Of a stretch of DNA of 64,000 nucleotides, positions 28,521 to 64,000 are shown one piece after another. The notes beneath the pieces are model-generated. The model did not search any database. It was not told the DNA's origin and saw only the letters and a list, made by a program, of their open reading frames with translations. Within the stretch, counting starts at the first letter, position 1. Every line of letters starts with the position of its first letter. This stretch comes from Sipunculus nudus (taxonomy: Eukaryota; Annelida; Sipuncula; Golfingiida; Sipunculidae). The position numbers and the translations under genes were made by a program. The stretch spans positions 10,961,979 to 11,025,978 of the forward strand of contig CM049321.1 of the NCBI GenBank assembly GCA_026874595.1, written 5' to 3'.

Positions 28521-29650
28521 ACCTCTCTCACAATGGTAGGGATCCTATTTATTTAAAAAATACATATTAAAGTTATCTAGATTACTTGCTTTATCTATTA
28601 TGGCTTGTTCCAATTCATGAACATTCTTTGCAGCCTAAACCGGCCTCTTATAAATGGCGCCACCTATTGACAGCGGGAGGAACCCGGCATCCAGGGTTCC
28701 TGGAAGCGTGGACCTGTCAACAGGTTTGTCGACAGTCAGGCCCAGTGCTGCGTGCAGACAACACAGTCAGTATACGTGAGGGTGACACTATCAGCTAATA
28801 GCTTGTCGACCAGGCAAAGGGGGACCGCTGTAAGCATATCGATCCGTCAAAGTGTATCCACTGCACTTGTAATTATATTTTAATCAATTTTCGAGAATAG
28901 CCCAGCGGAATTTGCATTCGGCGCCGACATCTCCTACCCATAGCTCTAGTGAATAAATGCCTCCCCAGTGACAAGCCGGTTGGCGCACTGTGAGGTCCCT
29001 TTTCACCTGATCAACAGATTGATGGTCTTATTAGGTGAGATGAACCATATGTAGCACGAGGAAAACGCCAGCAACAGCAATTCACTTGAGCCCACGTGAG
29101 ATAACTGTTTGTGTAAAGAACTAAACCGATATCTCAACCAAATCGCTCTTCATCGCTAAAGCCAGGAAACTGACAAGCTGCATGGAATGCATGAAATCAA
29201 CAAGCTGGTGGCGTGCTTGAAACCGACAAGCTTGTCAGGCCGGAGCACGTGAGGTTTCGCGGGGTTTTCCCGCGTTTTCCTGCAGACTGACTGTTGTACC
29301 AGGCTGGTTAAAGGTACAATAAGTGGAAAAATTGCCTTCGGGGCAGCGTGTGTCTGTGAGAAAGCTACCTTTGCCATCATTTGCTGGCCTCAGAACACTG
29401 CTGGCCGTGTGTAATGCCCGCGCTTACAGGTAAGGCTTCTTTCGTTAATATCAGCGAGAGTGGCAAGAGAGGTTGAATGGTAGAGTTGACGCTCTGGCCC
29501 TTGTTGAAGTTGTCCCTGTTGGCACGACCGTGATTTCAATGGCAGCCTTGTCCAGTCACGGGCCCAGGAATCGATCATAGCGGCTTAAGGCTGTCAGACA
29601 CGCAAATAGCTTATATATAAAGGCCAACACTGATACAAATATAACGCACC
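28521..29650. other. GC- and CpG-rich unique block at the methylation-like boundary
   Basis: Contains strings such as GGCGCCACCT (28,655-28,664) and TTTCGCGGGGTTTTCCCGCG near 29,255. CAG|GTAAGG at 29,427-29,435 is a consensus splice donor. To the right of about 29,650 CpG almost vanishes. This could be the promoter or first-exon region of a plus-strand gene, or the unmethylated flank beyond the 3' end of a minus-strand gene. No coding exon is recognisable. Confidence 0.35.
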
Positions 29651-30860
29651 TGTTAACCAGTTATACCAGACTACAGACAATTAAAATTGTTTCACCAGTA
29701 ACACAGAATTCAATGAATAAAATCCTGTCTGTACACAAAACAGCAGTGATAATAATAATAATAAAACACCTTTTATATCTATAAGAATTTGGTTTATCTG
29801 TGGTATCTGCAAAGGTTACTTCAACACCTGTAAGCTGCTCTGTGTTAAAAATGGCATACAGTCTGGTATAACAAGTCCTGTTCCAAAAAAAAGTGTCAAA
29901 AGTAACACAAATGTGGTAGGACTGAATGATGGCTCATTTCTCTGTGTCTCTTATTTCTAGGTATATATTACTTACATATCTGTTGAATGGGGCATTTCAA
30001 TAAGTCTTAAGTGGTTTTGAACCTTCCTCACCTCTCCTTCCCTTTCATGCGGATTCATTCTTTGATGCAGGTATTGAATGTATTTATAGTTTACATTGTG
30101 GACACCTGGTGATCAGGTATGGTATCAGGTAGAGCTCTACCTTGATCAGCGGCAGGTAATGGTTATAATATATACTGTGGTTACCTTTATATATTGAAAA
30201 GGTTAATAATTCAAAATTTTCTTTTTTTACCATTATTTACAAGGGTGACATTTTTTGTGATTTTTGCATACCTTGACCTGCACATGGTATACATATATAT
30301 CAGTTAACAGTTATCACATTACTTAATATGCCCGCTCAGTCTAAACAAACTGACGAGGACCCACAACAGAGTACAACATGGTTTATCTGTATCACATTAT
30401 TTAATTTGCCTGCTAAGTCTAAACAAACTGACAGGGACCCACAACAAAGTTCAAAGTCTTGTCCTCTGTAGGCAGACAATATGAAGAGCTGATTTAATTA
30501 ATTTTTTTTTTATTAACAGGTAGTATTAAATATATATTATTATTTATAATGTCATTCTCTTGCCTTCCAACAACTTAAACGTACAGGTGTGTGGTGGCTT
30601 GGATAACAAACATCAAATTCCAATGAGGCTATACTATAAATGACCGTTCAGACATGTCTACAGATGAGTTGTCAGTTAATGGTGATCAATTAATGTTTTT
30701 TAGTACAGGTTAATTACAAATCAGGCTCAGATATATAATATTTTATAAAGTAAATTTAAGAAATATTGTTAAGATTGACTCTGCGATATGTTCATATGGT
30801 ATTGTCAAATTTCCACACAGCATTTAATGTATTAAGTTAGAAATGTTAGCTGCTTCATGA
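29651..30860. other. CpG-poor DNA with an ~80-bp tandem duplication
   Basis: Starts a CpG-poor region (no CG seen at 29,650-30,045). At 30,312-30,460 a unit containing 'TCTAAACAAACTGACGAGG' and ACCCACAACA repeats once about 80 bp later. No exon is recognised. Confidence 0.45.
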
Positions 30861-31514
30861 TAAGGGTGCTTTTCCAAGTACGCGTTTTGTGAGAGTTTGT
30901 TGCGCGGCTGCTGCACGGCGAAAATCAAACCAGTTAAAAAGTCATGTTCTGTTTCCATGTATGCGATTGCCTCGCGACAAACGCACACTTCAGTTTAGGA
31001 ATCCAGCGGTGCTGGATTTCTGCCTTTGCCGCACGACTAACGCATGGGAATTCCGCCTAAATGACATCACATGTAGGGTTTCCCCGTACTCGTATGTTTA
31101 AGTCTGTTTCAGCTGTGTCAGGAAGGTATGCGATTGCTGCGCGGCAAACCCATACAAAATGCTCACATGGAAAACGACTGGCCATGTGGCAAACGCAAAC
31201 GCACCCTAAGGGTGCTTTTCCATGCAAGCATTTACTGCGCAGCTGCTGCGCGGCGAAAATCCAATCAGCTAAAAAGTCAATTGTGCTATTTCCATGTATG
31301 CGATAGCCGTGCGGCAAATGCACCCATCATTTTTGGAATCCAGCAGTGCCGCGCGGCAATGCGTCACATGTGGGGTTTCCCAGTACTCGTATGTTTAAGT
31401 CCGTTCAGCTGTGTCAGGAAGGCATGGGATTGCCGCGCTGCAAACGCATACAAAACACTCACATGGAAAAGGACTGCCCGCGTGGCAAACGCATGCACAT
31501 GGAAAAGCACCTTA
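30861..31514. mobile_element. Tandem dimer of a TAAGGGTGCTTTTCCA MITE
   Basis: TAAGGGTGCTTTTCCA opens at 30,861 and again at 31,207. TGGAAAAGCACCTTA closes at 31,500-31,514, giving ~15-bp inverted termini. The two monomers share the order CTGCTGCGCGGCGAAAATC, TTTCCATGTATGCGAT, GTACTCGTATGTTTAAGTC, CAGCTGTGTCAGGAAGG and ACTCACATGGAAAA. At their junction GCACCCTAAGGGTGC is a near-perfect palindrome, so the second copy abuts the first through one shared TAA. The high CpG content contrasts with the CpG-poor surroundings. Frames inside (70-130 codons) are not coding. Confidence 0.7.
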
Positions 31515-32202
31515 ACTTGAATGACATACTTGAGGTACCATGCATTTGTCAACTCAGCACATATTTGATGGCATCATTTTCATATTCAAGACCTGATACT
31601 ATATTTTACCAAAGGTTGTAATAAGAACTCTTGTGGTAAAATAGAAAAAACCTGACAAAACAGGCTTCATTAACTTTTGACAAAATCTGTATTAAATCAT
31701 GTTCTCTGAAAAGCACTGGGGATGATTACATTGAAGATCCCCCCCCTGTATTGACACCCCTACATATTGGACACACAATTAATACTGTTTTGTTGATTAG
31801 ATTCTTACATGTGAGCCTCAAGGTGGGATAAATATAACAAGATAAACACGATGGCTATATGGAAATGTTAAAAAGGGAGACCTTTATCTGAGATGGCGTT
31901 AGGCGGGGAGGGGGGCAGCCTTAAGTATAAAAATATCTGTTGAAATGGACAATGTTTCAGATTTTTCCAACATGAATATGATATGGTAACATTTGAGTGA
32001 CTTTGTGATAACAGCAGAAATAAAGTATTATCTATTTGCATAGTCTATGGGAAAGATGAACATGAATCAGATGACTGGAGAGACTAGATATTTGAGCTTA
32101 ATTTTATTGTCTTAAAATACTTGACTGATATTGGAGTCTGTTCATTGGACTATCACCTAAATTGTCATGGAAGGGAGGTCTTGTTTCATAAAAATTTTAA
32201 TA
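31515..32202. other. Codon-aligned relic and probable 3' UTR of the minus-strand exon
   Basis: At 31,519-31,590 (+) lies the segment matching the 4.2-4.5 kb frame. TTTATT at 32,103-32,108 is AATAAA on the minus strand, about 95 bp beyond the stop codon at 32,203, and is a plausible polyadenylation signal. A further C run lies near 31,740. Confidence 0.35.
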
Positions 32203-32448
32203 TCACGTGGGAAAGACCATTTTTTTCTCTTTTGGTCTATTCAACCAAAATTCATTAGAATTCCAGCCCTCATGCAGCACTGTTGCAGTTCCTGCGGCTG
32301 CTGTGGTGTAGAATAAAGCTGTTAAAGCAACAAAAGTCAGTAGTAGAGGCTGCACAAGAGCTGGCAGCAATAGAAAACAGACTGTGAAACCAACAGAGTA
32401 AAGGGCAAAGCCAGTGTAAACACTTAGCTGTAATGGACAAGGTCCCAC
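32203..32448 (-). CDS. Probable terminal exon of a multi-pass membrane protein, minus strand
   Basis: After a minus-strand acceptor (TTCAACTTACAG, AG at 32,450-32,449) the exon reads VGPCPLQLSVYTGFALYS and continues for 81 codons to TGA at 32,203. It contains two hydrophobic helices, about residues 8-30 (ending VCFLLLPAL) and 34-58 (LLLTFVALTALFYTTAAAG). A polar tail follows (GWNSNEFWLNRPKEKK). There is no in-frame ATG before the helices and the frame runs about 14 codons into the presumed intron before a stop, so it must be spliced to an upstream exon at higher coordinates. GC content is above the flanks and an AATAAA lies about 95 bp downstream. The pattern could suit the last part of a four-helix claudin-like or similar protein, but I recognise no family signature and give no name. 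A chance hydrophobic frame remains possible. Confidence 0.45.
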   Translation of the reverse strand: MGPCPLQLSVYTGFALYSVGFTVCFLLLPALVQPLLLTFVALTALFYTTAAAGTATVLHEGWNSNEFWLNRPKEKKMVFPT

Positions 32449-39470: not shown

Positions 39471-39488
39471 CCAGTGTAACATTTCATT

Positions 39489-40841: not shown

Positions 40842-42273
40842 CAGTGAAACCTGAACCAAGCGACCACTGCCGCCAGCGACCGTCTGTGACTTACGACCGA
40901 AAAATGATTGCACCGAGCTCAACCACTCTTTAATGCCCCTGTGTCGAGCGACCGTTTGTGGTACGCGACCACCGACCGCTCAAATGTGGCCGGTCGCTAG
41001 TCTTTACCTCCGTTAAGCGATCGCCTGGTGTAGCGGTAGTGGCACCTGGCGTCCTAAGTTAAGACTAAAACGACCGTGCCATTGACCGTCTCTTTAATGT
41101 GCTGGTGGCAATGGTGACCTACTTTCCCCGCGGTGAATTGGACATCAATTCACAATACCCTTCCAGGTGTCAATGGCCTGGAGACCGCGTGGCTTTAATC
41201 TTTCTCCAAAAATGAAAGTTCTTCGAATATTGCGAGGGAACATGTAAAACGACGCATTTCTTTAATTCTGATGCCTGTGTACCATTACTTTTTTTCAGCA
41301 CGGCCTTTCTTTGAACACATGTTTGTTTAACGATTGTCTAAAACATCTTTACGGTAAAGGATCACGTGCTCTAGGGGATAACCCATCATTAATATTCATC
41401 CAATAGAACTCCCGTTGTAATACAACTTGTATTATTGACACCGCGGTCGCATTCACTACGCTGTGGTCATTGACCGGAGTCATAACTAGTCTTAGCGATG
41501 TGTAAATAACATTTGCATGGATTTATTAAAAAAAGTAAGTCATTAAAGTAAGTTTGTCATTACGTAGGCGATCAACTGCCATTGCTTATCACACACATTT
41601 TTACTTGACAACATGTCAGTTTGTGACGACGACAAACTGACGGCCTGCTTCGATAAGATCAATACTGACAATAGAATATTCATCAATAAAAGAATAGGAC
41701 TCAATGCTAACTACCATAGTACCAATATAAAGAGACTGTTTGATAGCGTGAGCAGTCACCTGTAATCTAATGATTGATCCCTTCATACGTACTTTGAAGT
41801 TTATTGAGATTTTAATGGGGTCTGCTTCTAATTACGGAGAGCACAAGTCAGTGATCAACAAAGTGACTCAGTGTGTACTCATGGTACATCATTAATTAGC
41901 GGTTTGTGTTTGTGCAATATGACAAACAGGCTATTCAAAGCCTTTGATAAAGGCTTGTTTTATAAAGTTATAAAAGGACCAGCTTTCTTTGATAATTATA
42001 AGCAAGATTGATTTATTGTTTTAAGTTAATATTGTTGTTAAATTTTAAATATTGTTGTGAATATCTTGATTTTTTAATTATTTATATACATATATATATA
42101 TCTAGTATGTATTTTTATACTAAATGAATAAATGTTCACGTACACATATATGCCTTGATATTCTTTGTTCGCTTCATGTTGAGACATAGACCACCTGAGA
42201 CTTGAGACCAATTGTGACTTAAGACCGCTTTTGGTGTGGCACATCAGGTGGTCTTAACTATCAGGTTTTACTG
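40842..42273. mobile_element. Non-autonomous pogo/Tigger-like transposon with TA duplication
   Basis: CAGTGAAACCTG (40,842) and CAGGTTTTACTG (ending 42,273) are inverted termini, and each is flanked outside by TA (40,840-40,841 and 42,274-42,275). Sub-terminal GACCACTG and GGTGGTCTTAA-type motifs (AAGCGACC, GTCGAGCGACC) repeat near the ends. Terminus and target suit the pogo/Tigger branch of Tc1/mariner. At 1,432 bp there is room for a short ORF, but no transposase frame is visible. A small hairpin lies at 41,615-41,641. The element is CpG-rich inside CpG-poor DNA, which suggests a young insertion. Confidence 0.7.
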
Positions 42274-44286: not shown

Positions 44287-47200
44287 GTCACTCTGATCTG
44301 TCCAAGTGTCATTCTGATCTGATGTGCCCCAGTGTCACTGTGATCTAATTTGTCCCAGTGTCACTGATCTGATGTGTCCCAGTGTCACTGTGATCTAATA
44401 TGTCCCAGTGTCACTGATCTGTGTCCCAGTGTCACTGTGATCTAATGTATCCCTGTGTCATCCTGATCTGATGTGTCCCAGTGGCAAAGGGATCCAGTGT
44501 GTCCCAGTGTCACTTATCTGATGTGTCCAAGTGTCACTGTGATCTAATATGTCCCAGTGTCACTGATCTGATGTGTCCCAGTGTCACTGTGATCTAATGT
44601 ATCCCTGTGTCATCCTGGTCTGATGTGTCCAAGGGTAATTGTGATCAAATGTGTCCCAGTGTCACTAATCTGATGTGTTCCAGTGTCACTGATCTGATGT
44701 GTCCCATGGTAACTCTGATCAGATGTGTCCCAGCTTGTGTCACTAATCTGATATATCCCAGGGTAACTGTGATCAGATATGTCCCAGTGTCACTGATCTG
44801 GTGTGTCCAGTGTCACTGATCTGATGTGTCCAGTGTCACTGTGATCTGATGTGCAAATGTCACTGTGATCTGATATTTCCGGTGTCATTGTGATCTGATT
44901 ATAATCAAGTGTCACTGTGATCTGATATGTCCCAGGGTAACTGTGATCAGGTGTGTCCCAGTGTCACTGATCAGATATGTCCCGGGGTAACTGTGATCAG
45001 ATATATCCAAGTGTCACCGATCTGATGTGTCCCAGGATAATTGTGATCAGATGTGTCTCAGTGTCACTGTGATCTGATGTGTCTCAGTGTCACTGTGATC
45101 TGATCTGCAAATGTCACTGTGATCTGATATTTCCAGTGTCATTGTGATCTGATTAATCCAGTGTCACTGTGATCTGATGTGTCCAGTGTCACTGTGATCT
45201 GATGTATCCCTGTGTCATCCTGGTCTGATGTGTCCAAGGGTAACTGTGATCAAATGTGTCCCAGTGTCACTAATCTGATGTGTTCCAGGGTAACTGTGAT
45301 CAGATATGTCCCAGTGTCACTGATCTGATGTGTCCCAGGATAATTGTGATCAGATGTGTCCCAGTGTCACTGATCTAGTGTGTCCAGTGTCACTGTGATC
45401 TGATATGTCCAGTGTCACTGTGATCTGATGTGCAAATGTCACTGTGATCTGATATTTCCGGTGTCATTGTGATCTGATTATAATCAAGTGTCACTGTGAT
45501 CTGATGTGTCCATGCAGTGTCACTGTGATCAGATGTGTTCCAGTGTCACTGATCTGATATGTCCTAGGGTTACTGTGATCAGGTGTGTCCCAGTGTCACT
45601 GATCAGATATGTCCCAGGGTAACTGTGATCAGATATGTCCAAGTGTCACCAATCTGATGTGTCCCAGGATAATTGTGATCAGATGTGTCTCAGTGTCACT
45701 GTGATCTGATGTGTCTCAGTGTCACTGTGATCTGATCTGCAAATGTCACTGTGATCTGATATTTCCAGTGTCATTGTGATCTGATTAATCCAGTGTCACT
45801 GTGATCTGTTGTGTCCAGTGTCACTGTGGTCTGATGTGTACATTGCACTGTGATTGGATGTTTCTCAGTGTGTCCCTGATATGATGTGTCCCAGTGGCAA
45901 AGGGATCCAGTGTGTCCCAGTGTCACTTATCTGATGTGTCCAAGTGTCACTGTGATCTAATATGTCCCAGTGTCACTGATCTGATGTGTCCCAGTGTCAC
46001 TGTGATCTAATGTATCCCTGTGTCATCCTGGTCTGATGTGTCCAAGGGTAATTGTGATCAAATGTGTCCCAGTGTCACTAATCTGATGTGTTCCAGGGTA
46101 ACAGTGATCAGATGTGTCCCAGTGTCACTGATCTGATGTGTCCCATGGTAACTCTGATCAGATGTGTCCCAGCTTGTGTCACTAATCTGAAATATCCCAG
46201 GGTAACTGTGATCAGATATGTCCCAGTGTCACTGATCTGGTGTGTCCAGTGTCACTGATCTGATGTGTCCAGTGTCACTGTGATCTGATGTGCAAATGTC
46301 ACTGTGATCTGATATTTCCGGTGTCATTGTGATCTGATTATAATCAAGTGTCACTGTGATCTGATATGTCCCAGGGTAACTGTGATCAGGTGTGTCCCAG
46401 TGTCACTGATCAGATATGTCCCAGGGTAACTGTGATCAGATATATCCAAGTGTCACTGATCTGATGTGTCCCAGGATAATTGTGATCAGATGTGTCTCAG
46501 TGTCACTGTGATCTGATGTGTCTCAGTGTCACTGTGATCTGATCTGCAAATGTCACTGTGATCTGATATTTCCAGTGTCATTGTGATCTGATTAATCCAG
46601 TGTCACTGTGATCTGATGTGTCCAGTGTCACTGTGATCTGATGTATCCCTGTGTCATCCTGGTCTGATGTGTCCAAGGGTAACTGTGATCAAATGTGTCC
46701 CAGTGTCACTAATCTGATGTGTTCCAGGGTAACTGTGATCAGATATGTCCCAGTGTCACTGATCTGATGTGTCCCAGGATAATTGTGATCAGATGTGTCC
46801 CAGTGTCACTGATCTAGTGTGTCCAGTGTCACTGTGATCTGATATGTCCAGTGTCACTGTGATCTGATGTGCAAATGTCACTGTAATCTGATATTTCCTG
46901 TGTCATTGTGATCTGATTATAATCAAGTGTCACTGTGATCTGATGTGTCCATGCAGTGTCACTGTGATCAGATGTGTTCCAGTGTCACTGATCTGATATG
47001 TCCTAGGGTTACTGTGATCAGGTGTGTCCCAGTGTCACTGATCAGATATGTCCCAGGGTAACTGTGATCAGATATGTCCAAGTGTCACCAATCTGATGTG
47101 TCCCAGGATAATTGTGATCAGATGTGTCTCAGTGTCACTGTGATCTGATGTGTCTCAGTGTCACTGTGATCTGATCTGCAAATGTCACTGTGATCTGATA

Positions 47201-47406
47201 TTTCCAGTGTCATTGTGATCTGATTAATCCAGTGTCACTGTGATCTGATGTGTCCAGTGTCACTGTGGTCTGATGTGTACATTGCACTGTGATTGGATGT
47301 TTCTCAGTGTGTCCCTGATATGATGTATCCCGGTGTAACTTTGATTTGATTTGATGTGTCCCAGTTTCACTCTGTTATGATGTGTCCCAGTGTCAGTCTG
47401 GTCTGA
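44287..47406 (+). repeat. 22-28 bp minisatellite with 1,413-bp higher-order repeat
   Basis: Two unit types alternate: GTGTCACTGTGATCTGATGT + GTCCCA and GGGTAACTGTGATCAGATGT + GTCCCA. GTGGCAAAGGGATCCAGTGT occurs at 44,481 and 45,894, and unit order is conserved between 44,481-45,893 and 45,894-47,306, apart from one-unit indels. An inner period of about 600-630 bp is also visible (GTATCCCTGTGTCATCCTGG at about 44,599, 45,200, 46,011 and 46,642). Frames spelling repeats of LMCPSVT are artefacts. Confidence 0.95.
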
Positions 47407-47534
47407 TTTTTAGCTTAGCTGACTATAAGTCATCTGAGCTATAGTCATGGTCCATTGTCTGTTGTCCGTCTAGCTCTCCATCTGTCCTTCAGTCCGTCCA
47501 TATAAGACTGGCATGTTTCGACAATATTGGACCT
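47241..47534 (+). repeat. 294-bp direct repeat, left copy
   Basis: From TGATCTGATGTGTCCAGTGT to CAATATTGGACCT it is the same as 49,477-49,770, with one substitution seen (CTCTCCATCTG against CTCTCCGTCTG). It spans the minisatellite edge and the head of an AGCTTAGCTGA element. Confidence 0.9.
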
Positions 47535-47980
47535 GCCAATCTGAAATTCAGCATAAAGTTAGATGTCCAGAAAATCTCCTACCAAAATTGGGTCAATCGG
47601 ACTTTGTTCCTCCGAGATATTAAGGAAAAACCTCAATTTTTTATAAAAAAATCTAATTTCACACTTCAGGACTGCGTAATATAAAAACCACTTGTCTGGT
47701 TTCTTCATATTTACTTTAAATATTCCTCTATATAGTTTCTATGAACATGCCAGAAATTAAGTCAGTATTGTATAATTTAAAATTTTTTGGACTTTGTAAA
47801 AAACTTTAAAATACAACTTTAATTAATCAAAATTCAATTGTGTACCAAAAATAATCAAAATCTGTTAAATTTGTTTAAATATTGGCAAAAATATAAAATT
47901 GGTACCTGACATTTTGCCCAAGTTTGACCATGGCACGCCTTTTTCTTGTAAGAACATTTGATTTACTTTTCACAGTCGGT
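47407..47980 (+). mobile_element. AGCTCAGCTGA-type element, 5' part only
   Basis: Head TTTTTAGCTTAGCTGACTAT, a weak GTCC run (GTCCGTCTAGC, CAGTCCGTCC), then AGACTGGCATGTTTCGACAA and the body shared with 53.0-53.5, 55.7-56.2 and 59.0-59.5 kb. It ends near the GACCATGGCACG and TTTTTCTTGTAAG motif. The remainder is replaced by the foldback block. Confidence 0.75.
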
Positions 47981-47982
47981 AT

Positions 47983-48440
47983 ATATGTCAGAGACGAGAT
48001 TGAAATCCAGGCGGATTTTAAATTCGCCTAGACGAGATTGCGATTGTGATCTCGCCTAGGCGAGATTGCAATTGTGATCTTGGCTAGACAGATTTTAAAC
48101 TTGCCTAGACGAGATCACAATCGCAATCTCGTCTAGGATTTCAATCTCGTCTCTGACATATGTCCAGGCGGATTTTAAATTTGCCTAGACGAGATTGCGA
48201 TTGTGATCTCGCCTAGGCGAGATTGCAATTGTGATCTCGGCTAGACAGATTTTAAACTTGCCTAGACGAGATCACAATTGCAATCTCGCCTAGGCGAGAT
48301 TAAAATCCATCATGGAGCAGGCCATGATTTTAATCTCGCCTAGGCAAGTTTAAAATCCATCTGGTGTCATCCAGGCGAGTTTAAAATCTGTCTGATATTA
48401 CTTAGGCGAGTTTAAAATCTGCCCAGGCGAGATTAAAATA
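47983..48440. repeat. Nested foldback array built on CTCGCCTAGGCGAG
   Basis: A perfect 26-bp inverted repeat lies at 47,983-48,008 and 48,136-48,161 (ATATGTCAGAGACGAGATTG + AAATCC and its inverse). Inside, CGAGATTGCGATTGTGATCTCG and its inverse pair, and CTCGCCTAGGCGAG is a 14-bp palindrome repeated several times. A period of 157 bp is seen (CCAGGCGGATTTTAAAT at 48,007 and 48,164). To the right, GGCGAG-TTTAAAATC units decay to 48,440. No ORF is present. Confidence 0.85.
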
Positions 48441-49476
48441 GTGATCTGATCTAATTTCCTTATATATCAAGCATTGTTATTGACATATGAAAGATGTTTT
48501 CAGTCGGATTTTCAATATTTTAACACTGAATGGTTATATATAGTTAAAAGGTAATATATTTATTAATATTTACAGAATATTATAGTATTGATGTTATAAT
48601 TAACTTTTTTACAGTAATGTAATAATTATTCATGTGATAATTAACATTAATTTTGGAAACAGAATTATGAAATAGATATTTGATTATTATTTGAACCTAC
48701 AGCATCCTTATCATACCAATTATTTGCTAAACATTAATTAATCTTTATTTTTCTTCTCCAGTTTTTTTAACAACCTTGGGATTGTAAATATCACTAATAA
48801 TTTTTTTTAAAAAAATAAATTGTAATTGTAATTAAATATATGGCAATTAGAGAGTAACAAGAGGTATATTGAAGCACACTTATGAGATATTATGAAGAGC
48901 AAATCTGGGGGAAAAAGTTATCCACTTGCATATTGAATCAATCATAGATAGATAGATAGACAGATAGATAGATGAGTTTAGATAGCTATTACTTCACTAT
49001 TAAATAAGTATATTACACATTAACATAAACAATCATCCTATTTGAAAATTCTTACAGGACAAACAGAATAAATTAGTTGGTTGATCTAGTTCAAATGTTT
49101 CTTTTCACCCAGGTATTCAACACTCAACAGTCAAAACATGTACACTTATGGTACAAAATATGCAGGGTATCAGTATTTATGATGGACTTTGATACATCAT
49201 CCTTTTTTTAGGTAATTAAACATCATATGAGAAAAGGTAAAACTTGATACACAGATGTATGCAAGTGAATATTTCTTTGTCTTATTTAGTCTTTTCTTAT
49301 AATGTATATAATATTCTTCTGATCTTTTTTTTAATGTTTTGTGAGGCATTTTGTGAAGCTTCAATATTTATGTAGACTGTGTTACAAGATAACTGCCTTT
49401 TTTTTGGACAGTATTATATCATATCAGAAAAAATATGATTTCTAGATTCATAGAGTAATAGATCATTTATGCATGT
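48441..49476. other. AT-rich CpG-free-looking DNA with (GATA)n
   Basis: A GATAGATAGATAGA microsatellite lies at 48,947-48,974. No exon or known repeat is recognised in the remainder. Confidence 0.45.
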
Positions 49477-49770
49477 TGATCTGATGTGTCCAGTGTCACT
49501 GTGGTCTGATGTGTACATTGCACTGTGATTGGATGTTTCTCAGTGTGTCCCTGATATGATGTATCCCGGTGTAACTTTGATTTGATTTGATGTGTCCCAG
49601 TTTCACTCTGTTATGATGTGTCCCAGTGTCAGTCTGGTCTGATTTTTAGCTTAGCTGACTATAAGTCATCTGAGCTATAGTCATGGTCCATTGTCTGTTG
49701 TCCGTCTAGCTCTCCGTCTGTCCTTCAGTCCGTCCATATAAGACTGGCATGTTTCGACAATATTGGACCT
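49477..49770 (+). repeat. 294-bp direct repeat, right copy
   Basis: Same as 47,241-47,534 apart from one base. It begins abruptly after AT-rich DNA and ends abruptly at GGACCT, followed by unrelated ATGATGG. It carries a truncated AGCTTAGCTGA element head at 49,643. Confidence 0.9.
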
Positions 49771-50101: not shown

Positions 50102-50935
50102 TCCCAGTCGCACTTTGATCAGATGTGTCCCAGTGTCACTGATCTGATGTGTCCCAGGGTAACTGCATGTGATCAGATGTGTCCCAGTGTCACTGATCTG
50201 GTGGGTCCCAGGGTAACTGTGATCAGATTTTCCCAGTGTCACTAATCTGATGTGTCCCAGGGTAACTATGATATGTATTCCTGTGTCACTCTGGTCTAAT
50301 GTGTCCCTGTGATCTGATGTATTCTTGTGTCACTCTGGTCTGATGTGTCCGAGTTGCACAGTGATTTAATGTGACCCAGTTGCACTGTGATCTGATGTGT
50401 CACAGTGTCACTGATCTAATGTGTCCTAGTGTCATTCTGATCTGATGTGTCCCTGTGTCATTCTGATCTGATGTGTCCCTGTGTAATTCTGATCTGATGT
50501 GTCTTAGTTTCATTCTGATCTAATGTGTCTCAGAGTCTTTCTGAGCTGATGTGTCCCAGTGTTATTCCAAGCTGATGTGTCTCATTGTTATTCTGATCTG
50601 ATATGTCCCAGTGTCACTCTGATCTGATGAGTCCAGTGTCACTGATCTGATGTTCCCCATTGTCACTTTGATTTGATGTGTCCCAGTGTCACTGTGATCT
50701 GATGTGTCCTGGTTATATCGTGATCTGATGTTTCCCAGTGTCAGTCTGGTCTGATATGTACAAGTTTCACTATTATCAGATGTGTCCCAGTCTCACTGAT
50801 CTGATGTGTCCCAGTGTCACTATGATCTGATGTGTCCCAGTTATAAGCACTCCGATCTGTCCTAGTGTCACTCTGATCTGACATGTCCCAGAGACATACT
50901 GATCTGTCCCAGTGGCCTATGTTGTTCATCTGTAC
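50102..50935 (+). repeat. 22-28 bp minisatellite, second block
   Basis: Same unit family as 44.3-47.4 kb (GTCCCAGTGTCACTGATCTGATGT), but more diverged and without visible higher-order order. Confidence 0.9.
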
Positions 50936-52883: not shown

Positions 52884-55533
52884 TTTTTAGCTCAGCTGAC
52901 TATAAGTCATTTGAGCTGTAGTCGTGGTCAATTTTCCGTCGTCCGTCCGTCTGTCCGTCAGTCGTGCCGTCCGTCCGTCTGTCTGTAGATGTGGCACGTT
53001 TTGAAACCTTAAGGCCTAGGAATCCAAAATTCGGCTTAATGTTAGATGTCCCCAAGATCTCCTACAAAGCCGAAAACTGGGTCTTTGCGACTTAGTTCCT
53101 TTGAGAAATTAAGGAAAAACCTCAATTTTTTATTAAAAACCTATTTTCACACTTCAGGACTGCCTAATATCAAAACCCCTCATCTGTTTTTCCTCATATT
53201 TACCATAAATATTCCTCTATATTGTTCCTATGTACATGCCAGAAATTATGTCTGTATTATATAATTTAAAAAAGTTATGGGCCCAACATAATGCATTTTG
53301 TAAAAAATCAGGAAAGATATTTGATCACTTAACACAAAACATGTTAAAGCTATGGACTTTTTTCCAGTAATATAACTTTAATTAATCAAAATTAAATTGT
53401 ATACCCAAAATTAGATCAATATCTTTTAAATTTTTTTAAAATATAAACAAAAATAAAAAATTGGTACCTTAAATTTTGCCCAACTTTGACCATGGCACGT
53501 TTTTTTCCTGTAAGTACTGTGGATTTAATTTTCAGAGCATGTTTTTGTTAGCATTTTGTCTGTTAACACCAAAAATTTGAAACCATTTATTAAAAAACTG
53601 TAGATTTTATTCAAGTTTTCAAGCATAATGTAACATATTGTTTACATCAAGCTAGTGTTATGCAGTTTGCTATAGCTCAACTCCCCAGCTTCAGCTCTCA
53701 GTTCCTAAAATTTGGCATACAATTAGATGTCTCTTAAATCCCCTACCATGCCAAGAATTTGGTCACTAGGACTTAATACCTTCGAGATATTTATGAAAAA
53801 CTTCATTTTTCCATTAAAAACCTATTGTTACACTTCAAGACTGCCTAATATCAAAACCACTGATCTGAGTTTAATCATATATAATATACATATTTTTCTA
53901 TACATTCTCTATGCACATGCCAGAAATGATGTCAGTATTGCGTAATTGTTTTAAGTTCTAGGCCCAATCATAATGCACTTTGTAAAAAATCAAGAAAAAT
54001 ATATAATTCCTTAACAAGAGGATTGCTGAAGCTAGAGATCTTTTTTGTCAGGGATGTAACATTATTTAATCAAGATTCAATTGAATACCCAAAATTAGTT
54101 CTGAATTTTTCAAATTTTATAAGTTATTAGTATAGATTAAAATTAGTACCTTAAATTTTGCCCAACTTTGACCATGGCACGTTTTTTTCCTGGGAGCACT
54201 GTTGATATAATTTTCATATCATGCACAAATAAGGATTTCAGCTTTTTAGTTTAGAAAGCTGAAAGAAATTGGCCAAAAATTGTAGCTTTTATTAATGTTT
54301 AAATGAGACCATGTCAGACCTTGGCTCTCTCCAGCCCCTCTTGAGTCACCTGTATGTTGACCTTGTTGAACTTTCAGCAGAGTATGCATGCTTGAGGAGA
54401 GGTAACACTGGGGCAGCCAGGCAGCTTATGGCCAGCCACAGTTGATCCAGGTGTCCAACCCAACTCATCTAGTAGTTTTAACCAACAAAATAACAATAAA
54501 CAATAAATTAATAAATTTTTATTGGATTTTAATAAAAAATTAAGGAAAAATAGAAAAGGAATTTGTTAGTTTATAATAACAGGAAATTAACTTGCAGTTA
54601 CTGATGATATAAGAATCTTGTATCGATGGATAGAATGTCACGTATTCCAAATAACACCATGCAGTCACCTATGGTATTTTTCAATTCAATTTTAATGATA
54701 AAAAAGTAAATCATATTATTCATTACTAATCATTAGGGATCATATGAAGGAAATTAATGATAGACAAAAATGCAGTTGATAATATTAATCTAGATTCCTA
54801 CTGTGTCTAGTGTGTACATTGATGTGTAATTAGTCCAAAATGAATATATTACATTTTTTTTAATATAAATAAAAGCCATAACACCAGGTACTTATGATCA
54901 TTATTTAAATGTGTGAATTTTGTATATTATGGATTCTCAACATCATTGTTCGGTGAAAACTGAATAAATACCAGACATGGTGCGAATACTTTGCAATTGT
55001 ATTTAAATACAAATATGAATATGTACTCCATTATAAAATTTCTTGCATAAAGAATGGGAATTCAGGTAAAAATGAAAGTATATGAATACCAGTGCAAATA
55101 CTTTCACAATGTATTCATGAATGCATTCATGAATATATTCTTTAATATTATTTTATTAATCATTTCAGTTATATTTCATTTTAAAAAATCATATGATTTT
55201 CTTATTATTTTTAATAAATTATATTTGGGACAATATTTGTAATTTTTTTAAATAAATAGTTAAACTCTTATATTATATGTTCTGCTTATAAGTTATACAG
55301 CCAAGTCAAAATCTGTGTGACAGTAGTACTCCATTTGTTAATAAAATAAATGAAATCAATCCTCTTCCCTGTCTCCAAAGGTACTATCAAAATCATACAT
55401 AAGCTAAACAACAACAGCTCATAATACAGCTTATATTTATTACCACATAAAACCAGCATGTGCCTTATTTTTAAATCATATTTTTTATCATATATAACAG
55501 CTGAGCGCCGTGGCCCATAGGTCAATTGTTTTT
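52884..55533 (+). mobile_element. Large AGCTCAGCTGA element, tandem copy 1
   Basis: Starts TTTTTAGCTCAGCTGACTAT with a GTCCGTCCGTCTGTCCGTCA run (52,938-52,985) and ends CAGCTGAGCGCCGTGGCCCA + TAGG near 55,498-55,521. AGCTCAGCTGA and TCAGCTGAGC act as inverted termini. Inside are two diverged sub-units (about 52,990-53,545 and 53,690-54,215). Each closes with ACTTTGACCATGGCACGTTT + TTTTCCTG and CTGT-GAT(T/A)TAATTTTCA. The shorter frames do not agree between copies, so the element is non-autonomous. Confidence 0.75.
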
Positions 55534-55573
55534 ATGAAAGTAACAACCTCCATTTTTAATGCTGACTTATCTA

Positions 55574-58500
55574 TTTTTAGCTCAGCTGACTGTAAGTCAT
55601 CTGAGGTATAGTCGTGGTCCATTGTCCGTAGTCCGGCCGTCTGTCTGTCCGTCAGTCTGTCTGTCCGTCTGGATGTCCGTCCGTAAGACTGGCACGTTTC
55701 GACACTGTTGGACCTACGAATCTGAAATTTGGCATACAGTTAGATATCCCTAAAATCTCCTACCATGCCGAAAATTGGGTCAATAGGACTTCGTTCCTTC
55801 GAGATATTAAGGAAAAACCTCAATTTTTTATTAGAAATCTATTTTCACACTTCAGGACTGCCTAATATCAAAACCACTCATCTGGGTTTCTTCATATTTA
55901 CCATAAATATTCCTCTATATAGTTTCTATGTACATGCCAGATATTAAGTCAGTATTATATAATTTGAAAAAGTTATGGGTCCAAACATAATGGACTTTGT
56001 AAAAAAAATCAGGAAGATATTTGGTCACTTAAGACCAAAAGTGTTAAAGGTAGGGACTTCTTTCCAGTAATACAACTTTAATTAATCAAAATTTAATTGT
56101 ATACCAAAAATTAGATCAAAATCTGTTAAATTTTTTTAAATATTGGCAAAAATATAAAATTGGTACCTTAAATTTTGCCCAACTTTGGCCACGGCACGTT
56201 TTTTTCTTGTAGGTACTGTGGATTTAATTTTCACAGCATGTATACATTAGGAATTAATCTGTTAAAATATGAAATTAGAAAATAAAAGCTGCAAAATTAG
56301 GCTAGTTATTGAATATTTTTGGAGGCTCTTGTTGTATTCCCTTGCATTGTCAAGCAGTCCCCTTTGATGACTGTAGGTCATTCAGTGCACATCTCAATGC
56401 TCCCCAGGCTGTTGGCATAATTTTAGATGTCCCCAAAATCTCCTACCATACCAAAAATTGGGTTATTAGGACTTTTTTCCTTCGAGATATTAAGGAAAGA
56501 AAACTGTGTTTTCCATAAAATAAAGCCATTGTTACACTTCAAGGCTGCCTAATATCAAAACCACTGATCTGTTTTTGATTGTATTTAGTATTCACATTCT
56601 TTCATACGTTTTCTATGAACATACCAAAAATTAGGTCAGTATTTGGTATTATTTTGAAGTTATGGGCCAAAACATAATGCAATTTTTTAAAAATCAGGAA
56701 ATATATTTACTCACCTAACATGAGAATTGCTGAACCTACAGACTTTTTTCAGGAATATAACTTTATTTAATCAAGATTCAATTGTTTACCCAAAATTAGA
56801 TCTGAATTTTGGAAATTTTTCAAGTTATTAGCATAAATAAAAAATCAATACCTTAAATTTTGTCCAACTTTGGCACTGTTGATTTAATTTTCACAGCATA
56901 TATACATAAGGATTTAATCTTTCAAAATATAAAATTTCAAAGAAATTGATTGGAAAGAATAGCTTTTATTCATGTTTTCATACACCATGTCAAGTGTTGT
57001 TTACATCTAGACCACCTAGTAGTACAGCCTTCACTTGCATTATGTAACCCACCCCAGACAGCTTGCCTTGGGTCAGCTTGGCCACTACCAGCAGGCTTCC
57101 CCTCTGCCCTGCACTCCCCCCCCCCCCAGATGGTGTATAAACTAGATGAATGTTATTATTTTTGTATTTGATTCATTCTTATTCTAGGCTATGCTACATT
57201 TTAGATTTTGTATTGTACCACCAGGGTTACAGTGATTAAAGTGTACATTTAATTGTGTCCACAAAGTGGTGTATTGCTATGAAAGTGTGGATGTTCATGA
57301 GATAAGTAATTCCTTACTTCAGAGGAGTAAAAACTTCACCAGGTGTGAAATTGACTATTAATTCCAGTAATAAATTAAAACTGGGATAGTAATTAGCACA
57401 ATGATATTGTTTGTCCCTCATTCAACCAACAGTGTGTATACTTTATTTGTAATGTCTTATTTTATCAAATTTACTGAATCTTTTATTTTATTTTGGTGAA
57501 TAAAATTAAGCATGTACTGAAAACTCCAATGTGCAAAACTTTTTAATAGTGATTCAAGGAGTATTCTTGTAGATGCCATGTTGTGGCATTATTTTCCTTT
57601 AAATTCAGTTTAAACATTTATGATTTAAAAATAATAAAATATATGTGTATGCATAATATGACCCAATATGAGCTACACTCTGGATATATGATGATTGCAA
57701 CTTTTGCAACAATTCTAATATTTTAACTTATAGTTTCAGTTTTTTACTCTGTATATATAATGATTGCAACTTTTGCAACAATTCTAATATTTTAACTTAT
57801 ATTTTCAGGTTTTTTATTAAAAATTTTTAAAACCTGTAAATAAAAAAAATGATTCAGATAAAAACTTCTTAATGGAAAAAGTGGATATGCTTAAAAAAAA
57901 TAGGATTATATATAAACTTAAATGCATTATTCCCTTGAAAGTGAAATAAAGGTATTAGTCCATTCTGTCAACTTGCCAGTCCATCTGTAAATTTTCATAT
58001 GCATCACAGTATCTCAAAACTTTTACTGTTTTTCTTCATGACAGTCTTGTCAGAGTATTATTTTGCAATCATATATTTTGAACTTTACTATAACCAAGTA
58101 GGAGGGCCCCTTTCCTCTTAGCTTTTCATATTCTTATATAAATGAAAAACATTACAATAGAATATTTCTACATTCACCTTCGTGCTGCCCTCACTTTTCC
58201 CTTCTCCGAACCCCATCCCAAAGCCAGCCTCAGTAAGCAAGAACAAGATGAATCAGATAAATTCATACTTTAATATTTTGTATAACTATTCGTCCATAGG
58301 TACCTATGTACATGCCAGAAATTATGTCAGTATTGTGTAATATGTAGACATAGTGGGCATCACAATAATGTACCTTGTCAAGACTAAAGAGATATTGTGT
58401 CATACAGTCACGAATTCATAAATTACTTCATCAGCATAGTTAATCAAAACATCATATCTGTCAAATTGAAAGCTTGCAGACTACCATACACTTTAGATCC

Positions 58501-58816
58501 TTCAACAAATAGCCTTATCATCATTCTACTACTGCTTATTACTGCTGTCATTGCATTCATATTTGCTCAAATATATCACAATTTTCAACCCCTCCTAAAT
58601 AAATAAAAAATAAACCACTATATTTGACTCTATTAATCCATCAGTCAGGTAATTTCATTTATCATTTACTCGCATATTACATTACATTCCTTTATAATAG
58701 CCCAACATGTCCATGATATTCCTAAGCTTTATCGACTCAATATAGTATCACAGTGGAGAAACATTCATAGTCCAATCATGATCAGCTGAGCGCCGTGACC
58801 CATGGGTCCCTTGTTT
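55574..58816 (+). mobile_element. Large AGCTCAGCTGA element, tandem copy 2
   Basis: Head at 55,574 (TTTTTAGCTCAGCTGACTGT), GTCC run at 55,625-55,682, tail ATCAGCTGAGCGCCGTGACC + CATGGGTCCCTTGTTT ending 58,816. It starts only about 40 bp after copy 1. Its last ~515 bp (58,300-58,816) match 62,259-62,779. It contains a 69-bp tandem duplication (57,677-57,815) and a C run near 57,115. No CG is seen from about 56,609 to 58,180. Confidence 0.75.
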
Positions 58817-58877
58817 ACCTTAAGTATGTTAATCTCCAGAATTTCCATATTGGTTTGGTGGTAGCACTTGCTTCTTA

Positions 58878-61800
58878 TTTTTTAGCTCAGCTGACTATAA
58901 GTCATCTGAGCTATAGTCGTGGTCAATTGTCTGTTGTCCGTCCGTCTGTCGTGCCGTCCGTACGTCCGTCTGTCCGGATGTCCGTCCGTAAGACTGGCAC
59001 GTTTCGACACCATTGGACCTACAAATCTGAAATTCGGCATACAGTTAGATGTCCCCAAAATCTCCTACCATGCCAAAAAATAGGGTAAATATAACTTCGT
59101 TCCTTCGAGATATTAAGGAAAAACCTCAATTTTTTATAAGAAATCTATTTTCACTCTTCAGGACTGCCTAATATCAAAACCACTCATCTGGTTTTCTTCA
59201 TTTTTACCATAAATATTCCTCTATATGGTTCCTATGTACATGCCAGAAATTAAGTCAGTATTATTTAATTTTAAAAAGTTATAGGCCCAAACATATTGGA
59301 CTTTGTAAAAAAATGAGGAAAGATATTTGGTCACTTAAGACCAAAAGTGTTAAACTTTTTTTCAGTAATACTGCTTTAAATAATCAAAAGTTAATGTATA
59401 CCAATAATTAGATCAAAATCTGTTAAATTTTTTTAAATATTGGCAAAAATATAAAATTGGTACCTTAAATTTTGCCCAAGTTTGACCATGGCACGTTTTT
59501 TTCCTGTAACTGCTGAGGATTTAATTTTCAAAGCAGGTTTTTTTTTACCATTTTAACTGGTAAAACAAAAAATTTGAAACCAGTTGATCAAAAACTGTAG
59601 ATTTTATTCAAGTTTTCAAGCAGCATGTCACATATTGTTTACATCAAGCTAGTGTTATACAGTTTACTAGAGCTCAGCTCCCCAGCTTCAGCTCTAAGTT
59701 CCTTCAGTTTTGCATACAGTTAGATGTCCCCCAAATCCTCTACCATACTAAAAGTTTGGTCACTAGGACTGCATTCCTTCGACATATTAAGAAAAAACTT
59801 CATTTTTCCATTAAAAACTCATTTTTACACTTTAAGATTGCCTTATATCAAAACCACTGATCTGACTTTGATCATATATAATATACATATTTTTCTATAC
59901 ATTTGCTATGCATATGCCAGAAATGATGTCAGTATTGTGTAATTGTTTTAAGTTCTAGGCCCAAACATAATGCACTTTGTAAAAAATCAAGAAATATATT
60001 TACTCTCTTTACATGAAAATTACTGAAGGTAGAGATTTTAATCAAGATTCAATTGTATTCCCAAAATTAGTTCTGAATTTTATTAGTTATTAGCATAAAT
60101 ATAAAATCAGTACCTTAAATTTTGCCCAACTTTGGCCATGGCATGTTTTTTCCCTATAAGCACTGTTGATTTAATTTTCATATCTTACACACGTAAGGAT
60201 TTTAGCTTCTAAATTCTGAAGTTAGAAAAGGAATTGGTCAAAAACTAGCTTTTATGAAAGTTTTTATGAGACCATATCACACCTTGGCTGTACTGAAGCC
60301 CCTCTTTTATGTCCCCACATTGACCTTTCAGGCCAATTATGCATGCTTGAAGCAAGGCACTCTGCAGCCAGCCAGCTCTTGGGTGGCTTCAACTGGATCT
60401 AACTGTCCAACCCCCTCCACCAGTATTTGTTTAGGCCATAAACATAACAATAAACTTTTTTTTTATTCTTGGTTTATGATAAGAACTTAAAAAAATAAAT
60501 GGAAAAGGAATTTATAGTTAATGAGTTACAGGGGATTACCTTGCAATTACTGATCATTTATGGATCTTCCATGGATGGCCTAAATTGTATTTCAAGTGAT
60601 ACCATGCAGTCACCATTGGGTATTTTTCATTTCAACCATAAAAATGAAAAATAAATAATTAAAATAAATTGTTGTTTACTGTTAGGGATTATATGAAGCA
60701 AGATAATGATAGACAAGGATGCAGTTGATTATATTAAATTAATCTAAATTTCCAGGTCTTTTCCAGGTGTTTAACTTGTTGGTTTATATTTATTACAAAA
60801 TTAAAATAATAAATAAATATGTCAAAAATTTAAAATATTACTCAGACAAGTGCTCATTAAAGATTTTAATTTGTTTGACTTATAACTCATGGTTGTATCA
60901 GTTGTTACATGATACTGGCTAAATAATCAAAATTTATATTGCTGGTCCTTTATTTCAGTTCATAAAATTAAAAATTCCCAACTCCAGTTTGCTCCTGGTA
61001 TAATATATTGGGTGTTTTGATCCTTGGATTAATTTTAACACATGTATTAGTTTTATAGCTGAGAATACTTTTCTTTTTTTCCTGATACCATTAAAAAAAA
61101 TATAAATATTCAAATCTTTCCTGTTAGTGCTGTGGATTTAATTTTCACAGCATTTACACATTAACATTTCATCTGATAAAATCTGATATTTGAAAGCAAT
61201 TGATCAAAAACTGTAGATTTCATTCAAGTTTCCAGGTACCATGTCTTCATTGTTTACATCAGATCAGTGTAAATGCAGTGTACTGGGCAGTTACATAACA
61301 CCTTCAGGTCTGACCTACTGCCACTGTGAGTGTCTGGGTCAGGCTGGGTCAGGCAGTAATTACCACAGAGCCTCTCTTTCTCTCTTCTCTCTCTCTCTGG
61401 CAGTCTAGGTCTCTCTTTCTCTCTCTCTCTCTCTCTCCTCTGCTTTTTCTCTTTCTTTCTCCATCTTTCTTTCTCTCTTTTTCTCTCTCTCTCTCTCACA
61501 CACACACTCTCTCTCTCCCTAATTGCCTCCCTTCCTCCCTCCATCCCATTCTGGTGACAGGTACTATAAACAAGATACATTAGCTATACAAGTTGATGCA
61601 ACTTAGAAATGTGAATCAACTGAAATATTCACAATCACATGTATGTTATACTGTAAATTTATAGTAACATTCGGAAACTTGGATTAAAATTATGTAATGA
61701 AAAAAAGGAATAAATGCAAATATTGTTAATTTTTTCTTGGCTTAGTAGAATGGGGAAAAAATTATTTGCTTTGTTTCTCCATCTTTCTGTCTGTTTTAAA

Positions 61801-62779
61801 TATTTAATGTTCATGAATAACCTTTTTTTTATAAGCACTGTTGAATTAAATTTCATATCCTGTATGTATATGCAAGGGTGTTGTAACTCTAACCATCCCC
61901 TTCTTCATCCCACTGAGGCTTTGCTCCTTGGCACTGTGAACAATAGTTCTGTGGCTATAGCATAAAATTTAATAATTAAAGAAAAATATCTACAGAGAGA
62001 CAGAGGCATTGTAACTCTGATCATAACACAACACCCCCCCCCCATCAAGTCATTGCACCTGTGGAATGCTTTTCAAAAAGGTAACCAATGGAAAGGCATG
62101 GTCATGTCTCAAATATTATTTGCAACATTTTCTTCAATCATATAAACCAACCATGGCCCAGATTACCTCTTCCTCTCAAACTTTATCTACATTTCATCAT
62201 GTTTTTAAGATTTTAACTTTCCAGGTGGTTCAGTATTGTTGACCATTTGTCCATAGGTACCTATGTACATGCCAGAAATTATGTCAATATTGTGTAATAT
62301 GTAGACGTGAGGGGCATCAAAATAATGTACCTTGTCAAGACTGAACTTCTCAAGATATCATGTCATACAGTCACAAATTCATAAATCCCCTCATCAGCAT
62401 AGTTAATCATAACCTTGTATCTGTCAAATTGAACTCTTGCAGTTTTCCATACACTATAGATCCTTCAACAAATAGCCTTATCATCATTATACCACTGCTT
62501 AGCATACTGTCATTGCATTCATAATTGCTCAAAATAATTGCTTTTTTTTACCCCTCCCAAATAAATAAAAAATAAACCACTATATTTTACTCCATATTAA
62601 TCCATTAGTCAGGTTATTTCATATATCATTTACTCACATATTAAATTATATTCCTTTATAAAAGCCCAACATGACCATGATATTCTAAGCTTTATCTACT
62701 CAATATAGTATCAAAATGGTGATACATTTATAGTCCAATCATGATCAGCTGAGCACCGTGACCCATGGGTCCCTTGTTT
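58878..62779 (+). mobile_element. Large AGCTCAGCTGA element, tandem copy 3
   Basis: Head at 58,878, GTCC run at 58,937-58,989, tail ATCAGCTGAGCACCGTGACC + CATGGGTCCCTTGTTT ending 62,779. It begins about 60 bp after copy 2. Sub-units at about 58,990-59,545 and 59,640-60,180 align with copy 1, as does 60,250-60,420 with 54,290-54,480. It is the longest copy. The extra length includes the CT-rich block. Confidence 0.75.
61366..61555. repeat. (CT)n-rich polypyrimidine tract inside copy 3
   Basis: CTCTCTCTCT blocks interrupted by TTTCTTTCT, ending with CACACACACA and CCTTCCTCCCTCC. It produces Arg/Glu- and Ser/Leu-rich frames on the two strands. Confidence 0.9.
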
Positions 62780-64000
62780 GTATCTTGGTGTCACCAAGGC
62801 CCTGTGTCCACCACACCTGTGGGTCCTGGGTGTGTAATCATCCCCATTGCAGGGTGATTATTACACCAACCCTAACATCATATAACAGATGAATGTATTT
62901 CTCGCAGGTTCTAGCTACAAGTGTTCTGGAACTATCTACATGGAAATCACCAGCTCAGCCTAGCTCCCAGAGGCATCTAGACCTCCAGAATCATCTGTCA
63001 GCTAATCATAACAAACTGTAGTTTAGTAAGTTCCAATATTTGATACATAAACAACCTAAAAATAAGTTCAGTACCTATGTATAAAGCTTTTACAAAGTAT
63101 CACTGATGACACAGCAAATTAATGGATACCAGTTACCCATTTTGCTGACAATGCACAGAATACAATATTTTAATAACTGAACAATTAAAACAAGGTTGAC
63201 ATATGACTGTGGCAGCAATATTAAATATAACAGATCAGGGTATATCAGGTAAGATCGGAGCATAATATATATAGCTATATTGCATATACATCAGTTTTGT
63301 TATGAAGAAAAAACTTAGTATGTGAACAAATAATCAAATTCAGTTGCCCAAATTATGTCACATTTTATAAATAATATACAGAAAACCGTGGCAGGAAAAT
63401 TGGATTTTCTAGCAGGTGGTATATGAGAACTGTCATGCGGTGCCTGGAATTTTCCCTAGGAATCATTTCAATTCAATACACCCTGGGATTTCCCAGGGAA
63501 TAGAAAAAAGCTAGAAGGATCAAAATACAGTGCTTGAGTGGCATAAATTCATCCAGTTACAGGGGTCAAACATATCCAACTGTTCATAGTGCTTATGGTA
63601 CATTCTGAGTCAATAAGGGGATTTTAATCTGACCATTAGCACAGTTATAAAAGTGTTAACAAAATTGAATCTTATATTGTAGTTTCATCTCAACAAGAAT
63701 AATTAGGTCACCATGAACAAGTGCATCCAGAGACCCCACCGTAACAGCTGACGTCATAACCATTCACATTTTAAAACATGCATTAATTCTTACTATATAT
63801 AAAAATCAGGCTTACACCATCTTGGTCTGTTTATGCCACTTATATTTGAGAGAAGATGAGAGGTAGAGGGGATTGCAGCCTCATTTTGAATTCAGCTGGT
63901 TTTTTTTTTTTTGCACCTTTTGCCATATAGCCACAAGGAGCTTAATTTATTTTAGCTGCCATGGCTATATACAGCATCCCTCAGTCTGTTTGGCATCCAA
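62780..64000. other. CpG-poor unique DNA with a hairpin and one weak exon-like frame
   Basis: GGGTGTGTAATCA (62,828) and TGATTATTACACCAACCC (62,855-62,872) form a near-perfect hairpin. After TTTCTCGCAG at 62,907 a frame stays open for 37 codons (VLATSVLELSTWKSPAQ...) to TAG at 63,021. This is compatible with a short terminal exon on the plus strand but too short to trust. A T run lies near 63,900. Nothing else is recognised. Confidence 0.3.

What the first reader, a model, noticed from the sequence alone, without database searches (positions are those of the whole stretch)
29650..64000. Sharp CpG-density boundary at about 29.65 kb
Left of this point CG is frequent, even in AT-rich DNA (for example eight CG in about 70 bp at 25,262-25,330). 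Right of it CG is scarce and TG/CA abundant; I saw none between 29,650-30,045 and none in about 1.57 kb from 56,609 to 58,180. In molluscs, DNA methylation is concentrated in gene bodies and erodes CpG there, so the right half may lie inside a long methylated transcription unit although almost no exons are visible.
Basis: partly seen in the sequence, partly recalled or inferred. Interest (0 to 1): 0.7.

Follow-up and report, generated by a model that had tools for sequence, protein, structure and literature searches.

The report
Border of an ancient methylated DNA domain
At this point on an animal chromosome the DNA changes abruptly from CpG-rich to CpG-poor, most likely because the DNA to the right has long been methylated in the germ line; it is a clear but ordinary example of the patchwork methylation known from invertebrates.

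Summary
The boundary is real and well placed. CpG observed/expected is 0.79 left and 0.31 right of 29,650. With one CpG-rich insert (30,861-31,513) masked, the best change point is 29,645, support 29,581-29,720; 0 of 2000 block permutations reach the observed step. The deficit looks like deamination: CG falls most, TG and CA rise, and CpG columns in a low-domain repeat array vary to TG/CA more often than GpC columns vary by transition. With 100 kb of chromosome added on each side, the low tract runs to about 160.8 kb: about 131 kb, 92% low, broken by islets. Ten arbitrary 5-kb samples elsewhere in this 1.43-Gb genome split 4 low, 6 high, so such compartments are common here. Best reading: the border between an unmethylated and a germline-methylated compartment. 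The gene-body part is not shown: 763 stop-free frames gave no credible Pfam domain, and searches meant to tie low CpG to genes in this genome did not complete. A new instance of a known phenomenon.

The parts
8705..29645 (.). CpG-rich (presumed germline-unmethylated) compartment, O/E 0.86
   Evidence: two-state model
29581..29720 (.). boundary zone; best step 29,645
   Evidence: change-point fit with the 30,861-31,513 insert masked
29646..64000 (.). CpG-poor (presumed germline-methylated) compartment; continues outside the window to about 160,778 in window-based coordinates
30861..31513 (.). CpG-rich insert (42 CG in 653 bp) made of two ~300-bp related halves with inverted-repeat ends GGTGCTTTTCCATG / CATGGAAAAGCACC; probably a transposon-derived insertion
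40844..41900 (.). CpG-rich islet (52 CG in 1,057 bp); opens with CAGTGAAACC after a TA run, like a pogo/Tigger-type transposon end (recalled, not tested)
47936..48505 (.). CpG-rich islet (26 CG in 570 bp) of palindromic tandem repeats
52923..53088 (.). CpG-rich islet at a TCCG microsatellite
55506..55800 (.). CpG-rich islet at a TGTCCGTCAGTC-type microsatellite
58671..59106 (.). CpG-rich islet at a GTCC-type microsatellite
6541..8704 (.). small low-CpG block inside the left, high half (14 CG, O/E 0.18)
   Evidence: the 264-kb refit calls the same interval
29427..29434 (+). CAGGTAAG, a strong splice-donor-like word about 216 bp before the edge; one of two in the window, both on +, so possibly chance

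Best explanation
29,645 is the edge between two chromatin compartments of a mosaic-methylated animal genome. To the left CpGs have mostly been unmethylated in the germ line and survive. To the right they have been methylated over long evolutionary time, and 5-methylcytosine has deaminated to thymine, turning CG into TG or CA until about a third or less of the expected CpGs remain. CpG-rich islets inside the low tract are later insertions or expanding repeats that have not yet lost their CpGs, or that stay unmethylated. Shown from sequence: the step, its place, the CG/TG/CA signature, the 131-kb extent and comparable compartments elsewhere in the genome. Inferred: methylation itself, and that the tract is (mostly) the body of one or more long transcription units; I put that second step at about 0.55.
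For: Sharp step at 29,645. Left-to-right dinucleotide change is largest for CG (-0.49), then TG (+0.14), AG (+0.12), CA (+0.11) and CT (+0.10). Over 264 kb, low segments lack 3,786 CG and have 5,818 surplus TG+CA; high segments lack 688 CG with 1,926 surplus TG+CA. A repeat has 8 and 6 CG in its high-domain copies and 1 in its low-domain copy; of 5 sites where both high copies have CG the low copy has TG or CA at 4. In the six-copy 278-bp array of the low domain, CpG columns read 27 CG, 19 TG/CA, 14 other, against 100, 11, 15 for GpC columns (Fisher P 2.3e-5 on the first two classes, cells not independent). Low CpG also holds in stretches free of the masked arrays, O/E 0.00-0.28 in 7 of 7. Apart from CG/TG/CA the halves are alike: trinucleotide distance left-right 0.166, within-left 0.129, within-right 0.181. 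Ten samples elsewhere: 4 at 0.07-0.29, 6 at 0.77-0.90. Known pattern: sharp methylated/unmethylated boundaries predictable from CpG score (PMC2957685, passages).
Against: No methylation data. On six non-overlapping right-half repeat pairs the CpG transition excess is not significant (7 transitions to 4 conserved for CG, 27 to 54 for GpC, P 0.09). In the GGTGNCGCCACCT family 5 of 7 plus-strand low-domain copies still have CG, as do 2 of 2 high-domain copies. One-kb bins over 264 kb give a broad, not cleanly two-peaked, distribution. PMC2957685 itself says the CpG score cannot fix the methylation of one specific region, and PMC5481141 reports no obvious relation of oyster methylated regions to CpG content. 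No exon was found.
Confidence: 0.85

Rival explanations
1. The low tract is methylated because it is repeat-rich, not because it is transcribed: methylation targets transposons and satellites there, and CpG decay follows.
For: The right half is full of tandem arrays and duplicated units. In oyster, DNA transposons, helitrons, satellites and young repeats are more methylated than background (PMC4378273, passages).
Against: Repeats in the left half keep CpG (18,122-19,523 and 20,768-22,142 lie where O/E is about 1.1). In the right half the islets that keep CpG are repeats or inserts, whereas stretches outside the masked arrays are depleted. That is the opposite of repeat-targeted decay.
Confidence: 0.2
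2. Assembly join or foreign DNA: two different sequence sources meet at 29,645.
For: Abrupt change of one dinucleotide.
Against: The 264-kb neighbourhood alternates between both states, repeat families occur on both sides (4,322-4,532 with 31,742-31,514; 11,947-12,081 with 51,298-51,166), composition without CG/TG/CA does not separate the halves, and the window lies inside a 63.5-Mb contig.
Confidence: 0.02
3. The tract is methylated (or was) without being a gene body: a non-genic, repeat-holding compartment of the mosaic.
For: No credible Pfam domain in any frame scanned from 29.6 to 164 kb and no Rfam match; in Ciona 83% of methylated DNA overlapped genes, so 17% did not (PMC3827831, passages).
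Against: Short exons in very long introns escape such scans. Weak strand asymmetry fits plus-strand transcription: T>A in 13 of 14, G>C in 10 of 14 and TG>CA in 11 of 14 ten-kb bins, against 8, 5 and 7 of 12 bins to the left; arrays were not masked.
Confidence: 0.25

Closest known systems
Mosaic (fractional) CpG methylation compartments of invertebrate genomes (PMC2957685, PMC3827831; passages)
   Same: Alternating CpG-poor and CpG-rich tracts with relatively sharp edges; the paper speaks of tracts of tens or hundreds of kilobases.
   Different: At about 131 kb with islets this tract exceeds the mean methylated-region lengths listed for sea urchin, lancelet and ascidian (3.6, 4.8, 5.3 kb); methylation itself is not measured here.
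Gene-body methylation in molluscs, oyster (PMC4378273, PMC5481141; passages)
   Same: Long depleted tract beside an undepleted one, as expected at the edge of a methylated gene or gene cluster.
   Different: No exon, transcript or methylation call seen; the species is not identified.
Cg_HINE non-autonomous Helentrons of oyster (PMC7492417, passages)
   Same: Short GTCC-type microsatellites followed by satellite-like repeats, as at 52.9, 55.6 and 58.9 kb.
   Different: Subterminal inverted repeats and the terminal palindrome were not looked for.

Membership tests
mosaic CpG-methylation compartment | strong local CpG depletion beside an undepleted tract | tested here: met
   O/E 0.17 and 0.92 in the two fitted states
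mosaic CpG-methylation compartment | sharp boundary | tested here: met
   29,645, support 29,581-29,720 with one insert masked; unmasked the step moves to 31,490
mosaic CpG-methylation compartment | deficit of CG matched by surplus of TG/CA | tested here: met
   AG and CT also rise by 0.12 and 0.10
mosaic CpG-methylation compartment | two classes of tract across the genome | tested here: met
   4 low and 6 high of 10 arbitrary 5-kb samples, one each on contigs C1-C10; small sample, and 1-kb bins around the window are broad
mosaic CpG-methylation compartment | 5-methylcytosine present in germ cells | not testable with these tools
   no methylation data held
mosaic CpG-methylation compartment | DNA methyltransferase genes in the genome | not tested
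   seven requests for PF12047 did not complete
gene-body methylation | low tract coincides with a transcription unit | tested here: inconclusive
   no credible Pfam domain in 763 distinct frames; weak strand asymmetry
gene-body methylation | housekeeping genes lie in low-CpG tracts of this genome | not tested
   nine requests for PF00118 did not complete
Cg_HINE-type Helentron | GTCC-type microsatellite before satellite-like repeats | tested here: met
Cg_HINE-type Helentron | subterminal inverted repeats and 3' palindrome | not tested
   not searched for as such

The most novel reading that the evidence does not exclude
A tract of about 131 kb that has been germline-methylated as one block for long enough to lose most CpGs, yet is not the body of a protein-coding gene: either a very long non-coding transcription unit or a methylated non-genic compartment, which mosaic genomes are not thought to hold much of.
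Probability: 0.2. Interest if true: 0.5.

Novelty: new member of a known kind. Interest (0 to 1): 0.22.

Why it matters
It shows that CpG counting alone can map presumed methylation compartments in an unannotated 1.43-Gb animal genome to about 140 bp at an edge, and gives a well-defined place to test what stops methylation from spreading. It does not by itself change what is known.

Tried and rejected
Exon search. Pfam was run on stop-free frames in batches: 129 in the right part (50 aa or more), 137 in the left part (55 aa or more; 54 left frames of 50-54 aa were not scanned, from 320 outside six arrays), 199 of 218 frames of 33-49 aa from 29.64 kb on (the 19 left out lie in the CpG-rich islets at 30.9-31.5 and 40.9-41.9 kb), 276 of 279 frames of 58 aa or more at 64-164 kb (three crossed a locus end), and 27 of 71 splice-signal candidates, namely those under 58 aa within one locus. 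Five of the 27 had been scanned before, so 768 scans cover 763 distinct frames. Best E-values were 0.0022, 0.0043, 0.047, 0.015, 0.00058 to DUF2689, 0.0039 and 0.029; with 27 to 150 frames per batch these are about what chance gives, and I judged none credible. The DUF2689 match (about 0.09 expected in its batch) was not followed up. No Rfam family reached its gathering score in the window or in the 100 kb to the right; ARAGORN, run with the bacterial code, found no tRNA.

The duplicated 1.4-1.9 kb units at 52.9-60.7 kb were tested as possible coding paralogues and rejected: indels that are multiples of 3 are 2 of 22, 1 of 13 and 1 of 4, with no clear substitution phase. The high-domain 30-bp array was tried as a control for CpG decay, but only 4 monomers of 30 bp were split out; uninformative. 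Cross-boundary repeat pairs gave only 5 CpG-type sites; uninformative. The pooled pair comparison (CG transition share 0.435 right against 0.260 left; GpC 0.218 and 0.266) uses overlapping pairs and counts microsatellites, so I rely, which is not significant. A first splice scan used strict thresholds and gave 6 candidates; a later script failed on an index error and was mended.
Full report
What was checked. CpG O/E is 0.795 left and 0.310 right of 29,650, and 0.783 and 0.327 with tandem arrays masked. A single step gains 135.5 log units; 0 of 2000 block permutations at each of three block sizes reach the observed gain.

Where the edge is. Unmasked, the best step is 31,490, because a CpG-rich insert at 30,861-31,513 (42 CG in 653 bp, against 3 CG in each 500-bp flank) sits just inside the low side. 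It consists of two related halves (30,861-31,197 and 31,207-31,493) and has inverted-repeat ends. With it masked the step is at 29,645, support 29,581-29,720, and the two-state model of the window agrees. A refit on 264 kb absorbs the short low stretch before the insert. I take 29,645 as the edge and the insert as later.

How far it goes. The window lies at C16:10,961,979-11,025,978 of a 1,426,538,692-base assembly in 153 contigs. With 100 kb on each side, high and low tracts alternate on the left, and the low tract runs from the edge to about 160,778 in window coordinates: 131,133 bases, 92.3% in the low state, O/E 0.32. It is broken by further islets, among them 100,238-102,761, 104,229-105,312 and 135,134-137,707, so it may be several adjacent domains. 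Ten arbitrary 5-kb samples, one on each of contigs C1-C10, gave O/E 0.07, 0.16, 0.26 and 0.29 (four) and 0.77-0.90 (six). One-kb bins in the 264 kb are broadly spread rather than cleanly two-peaked.

What kind of change. With arrays masked, the left-right difference in dinucleotide ratios is largest for CG (-0.49), followed by TG (+0.14), AG (+0.12), CA (+0.11) and CT (+0.10). Over 264 kb, low segments lack 3,786 CG and have 5,818 surplus TG+CA, while high segments lack 688 and have 1,926. Without CG, TG and CA the halves are no further apart (0.166) than right-half chunks are from each other (0.181; left 0.129). A repeat beside the small low block in the left half has 8 and 6 CG in two high-domain copies and 1 in the low-domain copy, and at 4 of 5 sites where both high copies have CG the low copy has TG or CA (in a wider alignment 4 of 6). 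In the 278-bp array the CpG columns read 27 CG, 19 TG/CA, 14 other, against 100, 11 and 15 for GpC columns (P 2.3e-5, cells not independent). Against this, six non-overlapping repeat pairs in the right half give only a trend (P 0.09), and in one repeat family 5 of 7 plus-strand low-domain copies still hold CG. The direction of these changes is inferred, not polarised by an outgroup.

Gene body or not. No credible Pfam domain was found in 763 distinct stop-free frames (what was left out is told in Tried and rejected), and no Rfam family in the window or in the 100 kb to its right. Short exons in long introns would be missed, so this is weak evidence. CAGGTAAG, a strong donor-like word, lies at 29,427, about 216 bp before the edge; the window holds two, both on the plus strand, so chance is not excluded. 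In 14 ten-kb bins of the tract T exceeds A in 13, G exceeds C in 10 and TG exceeds CA in 11, against 8, 5 and 7 of 12 bins to the left. This weakly favours plus-strand transcription if the asymmetry known from transcribed vertebrate DNA (recalled) holds here. Requests that would have tied low CpG to housekeeping genes and shown methyltransferase genes did not complete.

Repeats. Depletion is not a matter of repeats as such. Left-half duplications keep CpG, the right-half islets that keep CpG coincide with inserts, tandem repeats or microsatellites, and seven right-half stretches outside the masked arrays have O/E 0.00-0.28. The simplest history is an old methylated tract with younger insertions.

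Literature. From passages only: CpG-poor and CpG-rich tracts separated by relatively sharp boundaries, predictable from the CpG score, are described for deuterostome invertebrates, with the caution that the score cannot settle one specific region (PMC2957685). In Ciona sperm, domains are almost fully or not methylated with sharp edges, and 83.0% of methylated DNA overlaps genes (PMC3827831). Oyster methylation lies mostly in gene bodies, with some young repeats (PMC4378273), and its mosaic is said to have no obvious relation to CpG content (PMC5481141). Molluscs and annelids are described as having canonical mosaic methylation (PMC11292947). The finding is therefore a new instance of a known kind. 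The mollusc assignment was not verified here.

Noticed in passing
window 52,884-54,788; 55,574-57,010; 58,879-60,737; part at 47,406-47,975: Non-coding units of 1.4-1.9 kb repeated at 2.7-3.3 kb spacing, 77-80% alike by BLAST, opening with GTCC/TCCG-type microsatellites as in oyster Cg_HINE Helentrons.
   Followed up: partly
window 44,292-47,407; 49,477-49,645; 50,102-50,906: A 26-bp satellite with about 123 copies in the main array and outlying arrays; 6 CG against 550 TG and 243 CA in the main array.
   Followed up: partly
window 47,241-47,534 and 49,477-49,770: A 294-bp duplication 99.7% identical, about 2.2 kb apart, holding the end of the satellite; looks very recent.
   Followed up: no
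window 12,150-12,799 and 14,713-15,381: A 94%-identical duplication in the left, CpG-rich half.
   Followed up: no
window 19,058-19,241 and 21,678-21,783: CpG-dense palindromic repeats of the type TCGTGCGCACGCGATA in the most CpG-rich part of the window.
   Followed up: no
window-based 97,943-98,442 and 99,888-100,387 (L015): Frames repeated nearly unchanged 1,945 bp apart, pointing to a recent tandem duplication at the edge of an islet.
   Followed up: no
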